Assembly (NCBI RefSeq): GCF_016904885.1
Contig: NZ_JADWYI010000001.1
Coordinates: forward strand, 6,262,001-6,326,000
DNA: 64,000 bases
Reading direction: 5' to 3'
Origin: Archangium primigenium
GTDB lineage: Bacteria; Myxococcota; Myxococcia; Myxococcales; Myxococcaceae
Positions 52,221-64,000 of this stretch are shown here, piece by piece (within the stretch, counting starts at the first letter, position 1; the number at the start of each line of letters is the position of its first letter). A program made the position numbers and the translations under genes. The notes below the pieces were generated by a model that searched no databases, was not told the origin of the DNA, and was given only the letters and a program-made list of their open reading frames with translations.

Positions 52221-55200
52221 ATGAGTTCCCTCACGAATCCGCAGCCGGCCCCCGAAAGCACCGCGACGTTCCCGCTCTCGCCGCAGCAGCGGGAGATGTG
52301 GCTCGACCAGTCCCTGAATCCCGACTCCCCGCTCTACAACGTGGGCGGTCAGGTCCGCATCGAGGGTGCCCTGGAGACGGACGTGCTCGCGCGTGCGCTG
52401 GAGCACGTCGTCCAGACGACTGATGCGCTCCGGTTGAGGCTCGTGGAGGCCGGGTCCCTGCCCCGCCAATCCGTGGCCACGCGGTGCGAGGTCCGCCTGG
52501 AGCGGTTGGACCTCTCGGAGCTGCCGGGAGCGGAGGCGCGTGCGCTGACGTGGATGCGGGCGCGCATGGGCGAGCCCATGCCGTTGCTCGCGTGCCCCCT
52601 GTTCCGCTTCACCCTCGTGAAGGTCGCCGCCGGGCACCACTATTTGTATCTCCAGCTCCACCACCTGATCGTGGACGGCTGGTCGCTCCCCCTCGTCCTT
52701 CAGCGCATCGCCCAGGCCTACAACGCGCTGCTCGCGGGACAGCCCGTCTCCCCGACCCCCGCGCCGTCCTACCTCGACATCGTCGCCGAGCAGCAGGCCT
52801 ACGAGGAGTCCGAGGACTTCGCGCGCGACGCGGCCTATTGGCGTGACACCTTCTCGTCCCTGCCCGAGCCCCTCGCCCGCTCCACCGCGAGTGGGGCGCC
52901 CACCCGCGACGCCCAGCCGATCACCTCCCTGATGTTGAGCCGGGAGTCCTTCGCCCGGTTGGAGTCCTTCGCTCAGCAGCGGGGAGCCGGTGCCGCGCAT
53001 GTGCTGATGGGGGTGTTGTACGCCTACTTCACGCGCGTCGGGCAGCGTGACGACTTCGCCCTGGGCTTGAACACCCGCAACCGTTCCGGCGAGCGGGCCT
53101 TGAACACGGTGGGGTTGTGCACCAACACCGTGTCGATCTGGTATCGCCTGGGCACGCACCTGTCCTTCACCCAGCTCCTGCGGGCGATCCGGGAGGAAGG
53201 CGCGCGCGGGGCCTCGCATCGGCGCTTCCCGAGCGGCGCGGTCAACCGGCTGGTGGGGATGGCACGCACGGGCCGCTCCCAACTCGTCGACGTCACCCTG
53301 TCGCACATGAGTGGCGCGTGTGACGTGCGCCTGGGCGAGGCGCGGGTGCACTTCCGCATCCTGACGGAGCGCCGGGATGACGCGGGTCTGCTCCTCTACG
53401 TGCAGGACTTCCATGCCCAGGGAGACGTCCTGCTCGAGTTCGTCGCGGGCACGGACTTCGGCGCGGAAGAACTCCTGAGGGTGAAGCAGGGTTTCCAGGC
53501 CCTGCTGGAGGACGTGTTGGAGCACCCCGAGGTGCCGCTGCACGCGCTGCGCCTCATGACGGACACCGAGCAGCGCAGGCTGCTGGTGGACTTCAACCGC
53601 ACCCAGGTCGCCCATCCGCGGGATCCGTGTGTCCACCAGCTCTTCGAGGCCCAGGCCCGGCGCGCGCCCGACGCGCCCGCGCTCCGCTTCGATGATGGCC
53701 AGCACGAAGAGACGCTCACCTACCGCCAGCTCGACGCGCGCGCCAACCAACTCGCCCGGGCGCTGCGCTCCCGGGGCGTGGGCCCCGGGCGTGTCGTCGC
53801 CCTGCTGCTCGACCGCTCGGCCGAGCTCATCATCTCCCTGCTCGCCATCCACAAGGCCGGCGGCGCCTACCTGCCCCTGCTGCCCTCCACGCCCAAGGCC
53901 CGCCTGGACTTCATGCTCCAGGACGCCCAGGCCCACGTCGTCCTCACCGACTCCACCCACGCCGCGCTCTTCCAGCTCGAGCCGGCACGCTGCCTCCAGG
54001 TGGACGCGGACTCCGCCGTCATCTCCACCCAGGGCAGCGAGGCGCTCGACAGTGGACTGACGCCCGAGCACCTCGCCTACGTCATCTACACCTCGGGCTC
54101 CACGGGTCAGCCCAAGGCGGTGCTCGTGCACCACCGCGGGCTGAGCAACTTCGCCCATGCCCAGACGCGGCTGTTGGGCCTCACGCCCGAGGACCGTGTC
54201 CTCCAGCTCGCCGCCGTCTCCTTCGACGTGGCCACCGGGGATGTCTGGATGGCGTTGAACGCGGGCGCCACGCTGTGCGTGGGCACGCGCGATGCCATCG
54301 CCCCGGGTGAGCCCATGCTCGCCTTCCTGCGGCGCCAGCGTGTCTCGGCCGCCCTCTTCACGCCCTCGACCCTGACCGCGCTGCCCGCCCATCCCCTGCC
54401 CGAGCTGCGCACGCTCATCGTCGGCGGCGAGGCGTGCTCCGCCGAGCTGGTGCGTCAGTGGGCGCCGGGCCGCCGCTTCTTCAACTTCTATGGCCCCACC
54501 GAGGCCACCATCTGGTCCACCGCGGCGCGCTGCGAGCCCTCGGCGCTGCCGCCCTCCATTGGCCGGCCCCTGGACAACACCCAGGCCTACGTGCTCGATC
54601 GCCACCTGCGGCCCCTGCCCGTGGGCGTGGCGGGCGAGCTGTTCCTCGGCGGCGTGGGTGTGGCCGCGGGCTACCTGAACCGGCCGGAGTTGACGGCCGA
54701 GCGCTTCCTTCCCAATCCCTTCGGTCCGGGCCGGCTCTACCGCACGGGTGACCTCGCCCGCTGGCGCGAGGACGGACAGCTGGAGCACCTGGGCCGCACC
54801 GATCACCAGGTGAAGCTGCGCGGCTTCCGCATCGAGCTGGGGGAGATCGAGGAGGCCCTGCGCCAGACGCCCGGCGTGAAGGACGCCTGCGTGCTGCTGC
54901 GCCCGGATGCGCGCGGCGAGCCCTCGCTGGCCGCCTATGTGGTGCCCCAGCAAGCCCCCGGCGATGCGCGGCCCTGGGTGGCCGACCTGCGCCAGACGCT
55001 CGCCACCCGCCTGCCGGAGTACATGATTCCCGGGGCGTGGGTGTTGCTGGAGGCGCTGCCCCAGACGTCCCACGGCAAGGTGGACCGCAAGGCCCTGCCG
55101 GCGCCGTCCTTCATGGAAGGGGCCGCGAGCGGCGCCTTCGTCGCGCCCCGCACCCCCACCGAGCAGGAGGTCGCCCGGATCTGGCAGGAGGTGCTCGGGC

Positions 55201-64000: not shown

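What the first reader, a model, noticed from the sequence alone, without database searches (positions are those of the whole stretch)
52221..64000. NRPS built from duplicated modules with one foreign-looking threonine A domain
A1, A2 and A4 share a distinctive SFD(V/A)A(T/I)(G/A)DV(W/T)MAL region and long identical stretches, while A3 has FDFSVWEMWG and a nearly canonical Thr code (D-F-W-N-V-G-M-V-H). Condensation domains C2-C4 are also near-copies. This points to module duplication followed by A-domain replacement. The unusual codes of A1, A2 and A4 may mean uncommon substrates.
Basis: partly seen in the sequence, partly recalled or inferred. Interest (0 to 1): 0.6.

Follow-up and report, generated by a model that had tools for sequence, protein, structure and literature searches.

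The report
Peptide synthetase with one swapped module
This is a giant myxobacterial assembly-line enzyme for an eight-residue lipopeptide, grown by repeated copying of one module, in which a single module had the heart of its amino-acid selector replaced by a common threonine selector while the other seven keep selector codes seen nowhere else that was searched.

Summary
The gene starts at ATG 52221 and runs 15.7 kb past the window: 9169 aa, eight modules (starter C1–A1–T1 … C8–A8–T8–TE; A7 carries a methyltransferase). Seven of the eight A domains, plus two in a second bimodular NRPS at 1.46 Mb, form one clade (support 100). A3 lies in the threonine clade. All elongation C domains, C3 included, form one clade (support 100; C3 sister to C2). 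So module 3 is a duplicated module with a replaced selector. The replacement looks like a sub-domain swap (about 60213–61358): the first ~60 residues of A3 keep a 4-residue insertion shared by all ten A domains of the two NRPSs. The C–A linker resembles neither parent and the 3' boundary is uncertain. "Foreign" should be turned around: A3 is common (54–67% relatives in 50 of 142 genomes), while the nine-domain clade is the orphan (nothing above 57% found). Its codes lie 3–5 of 9 positions from any other code seen, against a median of 1 for the other A domains of this genome. Uncommon substrates are possible but not shown; bulky ordinary residues fit too. A-core recombination is a known mechanism: a new member of a known kind.

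The parts
50005..51015 (+). Dimethylargininase / arginine dihydrolase-like protein (amidinohydrolase fold); neighbour, probably not part of the pathway
   Evidence: Pfam PF19420 43.9 bits (cut-off 23), NCBIfam NF045659 138 of 300 bits. Orthologues of 53-61% in two dozen of 142 genomes of the order; the four regions inspected hold no NRPS. The part upstream of ~50098 may not be coding.
51070..52122 (+). Membrane fatty-acid-desaturase-like di-iron enzyme; likely tailoring gene (acyl desaturation or hydroxylation)
   Evidence: PF00487 87.7 bits; NF041365 GntB arginine hydroxylase 80 bits, well under its cut-off of 380. Homologues lie within ~3 kb of an NRPS in 10 of 14 other places inspected. Ends 98 bp before the NRPS start.
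52221..64000 (+). Eight-module NRPS; the window holds the first 3926 of 9169 residues, the gene continues to genome 6341730
52251..53585 (+). C1, starter-type condensation domain (lipoinitiation)
   Evidence: 24-27% to C2-C8 but 64% to C1 of the bimodular NRPS; best solved relatives are 7c1k/7c1h (RzmA starter C, PMC7804268), ObiF1 and CDA C1. HHLIVDG intact
53577..55100 (+). A1, code DVGLIGFIW-K (orphan clade)
55134..55352 (+). T1 carrier domain (GGHSLLA)
55419..56762 (+). C2
   Evidence: Member of the C2-C8 clade, support 100
56763..58292 (+). A2, code DAAVIGFIN-K (orphan clade, sister of A4, support 90)
58326..58544 (+). T2
58611..59954 (+). C3, native to the duplicated modules; sister of C2 (support 97)
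59955..61526 (+). A3, code DFWNVGMVH-K (threonine); chimeric domain
   Evidence: Thr clade support 99
60213..61358 (+). Stretch of A3 that follows other myxobacterial Thr A domains rather than sibling modules; strongest at 60501-61085
   Evidence: Two-state segmentation, stable at penalties 12 and 20
60054..60095 (+). Native remnant near the A3 N-terminus: region of the 4-residue insertion shared by all ten A domains of the two NRPSs
   Evidence: 22-residue form in these 10 domains only, 18-residue form in 144 others, three others with different longer forms
61557..61775 (+). T3, sibling-like
   Evidence: 64-75% to T1, T2, T4-T7; sibling-like
61821..63164 (+). C4
63162..64000 (+). A4, code DAATLGIIE-K (orphan clade), cut by the window edge; ends at equivalent position 64691

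Best explanation
Shown from sequence: one 9169-aa NRPS of eight modules whose elongation modules descend from a single C-A-T module, related to a small two-module NRPS elsewhere in the same genome that has the same ends (starter C 64%, TE 63%). Module 3 is one of these copies, in which the substrate-binding part of the A domain was exchanged by recombination for that of an ordinary myxobacterial threonine A domain, while C3, the first ~60 residues of A3 and T3 stayed. Inferred: the starter C loads a fatty acyl group and the line adds X1-X2-Thr-X4-X5-X6-(N-methyl)X7-X8, all L because no epimerisation domain is present. The TE releases the chain, plausibly by lactonisation on the Thr3 hydroxyl, and the adjacent cyclic-peptide-type ABC exporter ships it out. 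Introducing Thr at position 3 would have given the peptide a ring-closing hydroxyl, a possible reason why this one swap was kept (speculation). Substrates of the other seven are unassigned; codes and tree neighbours point weakly to bulky aromatic, aliphatic or Arg-like residues.
For: A tree: A1, A2, A4-A8 plus QA1, QA2 one clade, SH-aLRT 100, stem 0.315; A3 in the Thr group, 99. C tree: C2-C8 plus QC2 one clade, 100, stem 0.54; C3 sister of C2, 97. Segmentation of module 3. Sibling-only 4-residue insertion in A3. Thr A relatives of 54-67% in 50 of 142 genomes. Paralogous bimodular NRPS. Its two A domains differ by 44 nt in the 81 codons that hold code positions 278-331 but by 9 nt in the 243 codons before and 1 nt in the 84 after, so pocket-region exchange or sparing happened at least once more in this family. 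Starter C, N-MT in A7, TE, exporter 281 of 286.2 bits, second best of 74 matches in the genome, the best one also beside a giant NRPS.
Against: The C-A linker of module 3 (LLAEGRPVVPALPVTQG) resembles neither siblings nor Thr donors, and the 3' boundary is uncertain (lower penalties split the donor-like stretch, up to aa 3107), so a larger exchange with later homogenisation of the N-terminus is possible. No donor closer than 67% was found, so the swap is old or its donor unsampled, and its exact ends are eroded. The product, cyclisation and lipidation are inferred from domain types only.
Confidence: 0.82

Rival explanations
1. The whole A domain with its C-A linker was exchanged, not a sub-domain.
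For: The C-A linker differs from all siblings, and the Asub part of A3 resembles common myxobacterial A domains (60-68%) and A8 rather than the clade.
Against: Residues ~2611-2640 are closer to siblings and carry the 4-residue insertion that no Thr donor examined has; T3 and its N-terminal linker are sibling-like.
Confidence: 0.15
2. A3 is the original and the seven other A domains were replaced or homogenised by gene conversion later.
For: Conversion or recent duplication clearly acts in this family: QA1 and QA2 are almost identical outside the pocket, and exact 128-151 nt repeats link modules 6 and 7. A3-type domains are the common type.
Against: The nine clade domains are 63-78% identical to each other (QA1/QA2 excepted), too diverged for recent homogenisation. 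It needs seven events instead of one. A3 carries the clade's own N-terminal insertion. The bimodular paralogue has only clade A domains.
Confidence: 0.07
3. The unusual codes select ordinary bulky proteinogenic residues through a divergent pocket, so nothing chemically uncommon is made (this concerns the substrate question and is compatible with the best explanation).
For: The sister group carries Tyr/Phe-like codes (DASTIAAxx, DAATIAAVC, DACTIAAIC) and Arg-like codes (DLESIGTVI). Large substrates are known to be bound by many different pocket architectures (PMC13126170).
Against: Codes are 3-5 of 9 positions from every code collected here, so no direct assignment is possible.
Confidence: 0.6
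4. The whole orphan lineage came in by horizontal transfer from a bacterium not sampled here (compatible with the best explanation).
For: No domain above 57% in 195 genomes of the phylum, including three of the same genus.
Against: Codon-position composition matches the neighbouring genes; two diverged loci (1.46 and 6.31 Mb) exist in the genome; the associated desaturase family is typical of NRPS loci in this bacterial family. Loss in relatives explains the pattern as well.
Confidence: 0.2

Closest known systems
A-core (sub-domain) recombination in NRPS evolution (PMC8097286; microcystin McyB-A1, hormaomycin, anabaenopeptin cases)
   Same: Exchange confined mainly to the substrate-binding part of one A domain, with C and T domains of the module kept.
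   Different: Here the event is read from a single enzyme by comparing one module with seven siblings; the C-A linker also changed, and a second pocket-limited difference is seen in a paralogous NRPS.
Lipopeptide NRPSs with starter C domains (rhizomide RzmA, PMC7804268; CDA)
   Same: N-terminal starter C (RzmA-Cs is the best solved relative), C-A-T modules, C-terminal TE, cyclic-peptide-type ABC exporter next door.
   Different: Different modules, an orphan set of A codes, an N-methylating seventh module, desaturase-like gene directly upstream.
Threonine A domains of myxobacterial NRPSs
   Same: A3 code DFWNVGMVH and 54-67% identity over the domain.
   Different: N-terminal remnant and flanking domains belong to the orphan modules.
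Interrupted (N-methyltransferase) A domains
   Same: A7 holds a ~410-residue methyltransferase insertion in its C-terminal part.
   Different: Nothing unusual seen.

Membership tests
Multimodular lipopeptide NRPS with starter C | C-A-T modules with intact catalytic motifs | tested here: met
   8 C (HHxxxDG), 8 A (YTSGSTG, YR[TS]GD, RGxRIE, GKxD), 8 T (GGHSLLA)
Multimodular lipopeptide NRPS with starter C | First C domain of starter type | tested here: met
   Best solved relatives are the RzmA starter C (7c1k, 7c1h), ObiF1 and CDA C1; 24-27% to own elongation C domains. By similarity only
Multimodular lipopeptide NRPS with starter C | Product carries a fatty acyl chain | not testable with these tools
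   Needs metabolomics
A-core recombination event | A phylogeny of the module disagrees with its C phylogeny | tested here: met
A-core recombination event | Breakpoints inside the A domain, with native C-A linker and native Asub | tested here: inconclusive
   5' breakpoint inside A (insertion kept); the C-A linker matches neither parent; 3' end ambiguous
A-core recombination event | Identifiable donor | tested here: inconclusive
   Donor family identified (myxobacterial Thr A domains), individual donor not; best 67%
Threonine-activating A domain (A3) | Code of the DFWNxGMVH type and position in the Thr clade | tested here: met
   code family in PMC12283262
Threonine-activating A domain (A3) | Activates Thr in vitro | not testable with these tools
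   ATP-exchange assay needed
A domains for uncommon substrates (A1, A2, A4) | Code far from those seen | tested here: met
   Distance 3-5 of 9 versus median 1 for 30 other A domains of this genome, one-sided Mann-Whitney p = 0.0006
A domains for uncommon substrates (A1, A2, A4) | Substrate is non-proteinogenic | not testable with these tools
   No predictor with labelled training data available; none of the six codes tried occurs in the paper library

The most novel reading that the evidence does not exclude
The nine orphan A domains are a specificity lineage not described before, which spread through one genome by module duplication and was recoded pocket by pocket (in at least one visible case by exchanging only the ~80 codons that hold the code). 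Several of them select non-proteinogenic residues, so the enzyme makes an undescribed class of acyl octapeptide.
Probability: 0.25. Interest if true: 0.6.

Novelty: new member of a known kind. Interest (0 to 1): 0.42.

Why it matters
The enzyme is a natural example of what NRPS engineers try to do: a threonine pocket placed in a foreign A domain inside a long assembly line that looks intact, with the junctions visible because seven sibling modules serve as internal controls. The bimodular paralogue shows pocket-limited divergence between two otherwise nearly identical A domains. If the orphan codes can be assigned by assay, predictors gain up to nine new codes from one lineage.

Tried and rejected
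Searching the paper library for six of the orphan codes found nothing. A search for codes of known Arg/Tyr/Orn domains gave only two papers, so no labelled code set could be built. An arginine-tailoring idea (amidinohydrolase plus GntB-like enzyme upstream) was dropped for the amidinohydrolase: it occurs at 53-61% in two dozen genomes, without an NRPS nearby in the four regions inspected, and its neighbours are not conserved there. The desaturase has no match among solved structures and its GntB score is far under cut-off. A structure model of A4 (mean pLDDT 71, ten-row alignment) only confirmed the A-domain fold (closest Txo2, GrsA 1amu, AstC, DhbF, McyB, ApnA) and says nothing about substrate. 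The first donor comparison used antisense frames for some donors and was discarded and redone. I looked for a foreign donor of the divergent QA1/QA2 stretch and found none: both versions are clade-typical. No MbtH gene lies in the cluster; the only one in the genome is at 2.18 Mb. A 20-residue test peptide sent to NCBIfam was meaningless and is ignored.

Full report
WHAT IS THERE. The window is G000:C1:6262001-6326000 of a 9.49-Mb genome; by its NRPS relatives it is a myxobacterium. The reported feature is the first 43% of one ORF. The frame is open from the ATG at 52221 to genome 6341730, 9169 aa. HMM and motif searches give C1-A1-T1-C2-A2-T2-C3-A3-T3-C4-A4-T4-C5-A5-T5-C6-A6-T6-C7-A7(MT)-T7-C8-A8-T8-TE. 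All catalytic motifs are present. No epimerisation domain is visible between T and C domains (read from the sequence and the domain hits).

THE OBSERVATION. Codes read through an HMM alignment are A1 DVGLIGFIW, A2 DAAVIGFIN, A3 DFWNVGMVH, A4 DAATLGIIE, A5 DVSNIGIIN, A6 DAFVMVLIW, A7 DAAVMALIW, A8 DALGMFIIW. The same columns give canonical codes for other A domains of this genome, so the mapping is sound. A1/A2/A4 are 70-76% identical and A3 is 45-51% to every other A domain of the enzyme; C2-C8 are 69-82% identical.

A SECOND COPY OF THE SYSTEM. A bimodular NRPS (2382 aa, C-A-T-C-A-T-TE, genome 1468675 down to 1461527) has the same kind of starter C (64%), the same TE (63%) and two A domains of the same type, 66-74% to the clade A domains of the large enzyme. 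Its two A domains are nearly identical in DNA except for one block: 44 differences in the 81 codons around code positions 278-331, against 9 in the 243 codons before and 1 in the 84 after. The maximum of 48 differences in any 325-nt window exceeds all 2000 permutations (best 31). 9 of the 31 changed codons in the block are synonymous, so selection on single residues is unlikely to be the whole explanation. Both versions of the block are clade-typical rather than imported from another family. This is either a sub-domain exchange within the clade or conversion that spared the pocket; the data do not separate the two.

TREES. In a tree of 274 A domains from this genome and 78 named loci, the seven plus two form one clade (SH-aLRT 100, stem 0.315 changes per column). 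A3 sits in a threonine group (99). In a tree of about 170 C domains, C2-C8 and the bimodular C2 form one clade (100, stem 0.54) and C3 is the sister of C2 (97). A and C histories disagree only in module 3. That is the evidence for A replacement in a duplicated module. Both are maximum-likelihood trees made quickly, and the deeper branching order inside the clades is weakly supported.

WHERE THE SWAP ENDS. Module 3 was compared with its siblings and with 12 Thr A domains of other myxobacteria. C3 and most of T3 are sibling-like. Donor-like sequence runs from about aa 2665 to 3046 (window 60213-61358), and very clearly from 2761 to 2955, that is from just after core motif A3 to past the pocket. 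The first ~60 residues of A3 keep a 4-residue insertion (PHALAVSFEDGPRTRTLTY) that is present in all ten A domains of the two NRPSs; 144 other scored A domains have the shorter form and three have different, longer ones. The C-A linker of module 3 fits neither side. Natural A-core exchanges are reported usually to keep the C-A linker and Asub (PMC8097286); here the 5' junction agrees inside the A domain, but linker and Asub are not clean. The Asub of A8 is closest to that of A3 (74%) and not to its own clade, so at least one further exchange took place.

WHICH DOMAIN IS FOREIGN. Thr A domains like A3 (54-67%) occur in 50 of 142 genomes of the order. For the A1 type nothing above 57% was found in 145 genomes of the order, 195 of the phylum, or the named genome collection. 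The unusual part of this enzyme is therefore the set of seven, not A3.

SUBSTRATES. Orphan codes lie at Hamming distance 3-5 (of 9) from the nearest of 268 collected codes; the other 30 A domains of the genome have a median of 1 (one-sided p = 0.0006). Within the clade, code positions are far more variable than random core positions (mean pairwise identity 0.39 against 0.69 overall, p = 0.0016), so the copies appear diversified in specificity. Tree neighbours carry Tyr/Phe-like codes (DASTIAAxx, DAATIAAVC, DACTIAAIC) and Arg-like codes (DLESIGTVI). Position 239 is small (G, A or S) in A1, A2, A4, A5, A7, QA1 and QA2, which leaves room for a long side chain; E331 in A4 and D331 in QA2 would suit a basic group. 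These are weak inferences. Large substrates are known to be recognised by several unrelated pocket architectures (PMC13126170), so unusual codes do not prove unusual substrates.

SURROUNDINGS AND PRODUCT. A desaturase-like di-iron membrane enzyme lies 98 bp upstream. Its homologues sit next to an NRPS in 10 of 14 other places inspected, so it is probably a tailoring gene. A cyclic-peptide-type ABC exporter follows about 0.6 kb downstream (281 bits, cut-off 286.2; the second best of the genome, the best being beside the 3.3-Mb NRPS). The amidinohydrolase gene farther upstream is probably a bystander. The inferred product is an acyl octapeptide X-X-Thr-X-X-X-(NMe)X-X, possibly a lactone through Thr3. 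No match to a described compound was found in the library, though that library is partial.

VERDICT. Observation confirmed and extended. Interpretation partly right: duplication and selector replacement yes, with a sub-domain boundary; the roles of ordinary and odd are reversed; the substrate claim is open. The mechanism is known; the example is clean and the orphan lineage is worth an assay.

Noticed in passing
L004 (genome C1:1461527-1468675, minus strand): Bimodular paralogue of the NRPS whose two A domains are almost identical in DNA except for one ~80-codon block holding code positions 278-331: a very sharp case of pocket-limited divergence.
   Followed up: partly
window 51070-52122; also genome C1:3043796-3044719: A family of desaturase-like membrane enzymes sits directly beside NRPS genes in many myxobacteria (10 of 14 places inspected); its best curated match is an arginine hydroxylase (GntB), far below cut-off. 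Could be acyl desaturation or amino-acid hydroxylation.
   Followed up: partly
A8, genome about 6340400-6340600 (L002): The C-terminal sub-domain of A8 is closest to that of A3 (74%) and unlike its own clade, pointing to another exchange inside the same gene.
   Followed up: partly
genome C1:3335522-3382529 (L009-L011): A very large two-gene NRPS of about 14-16 modules with repeated DLFNNALTY (Ala-like), DGKDLGVVD (Gln-like) and aromatic-type codes, and its own cyclic-peptide exporter at 3332793-3334388.
   Followed up: no
window 36774-41954: 1726-aa protein made mostly of tetratricopeptide repeats, upstream of the NRPS region.
   Followed up: no
genome of the window compared with three of the same genus: This genome is 9.5 Mb while the three held genomes of the same genus are 12.0-12.3 Mb, and none of the three has the orphan A-domain clade.
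   Followed up: no
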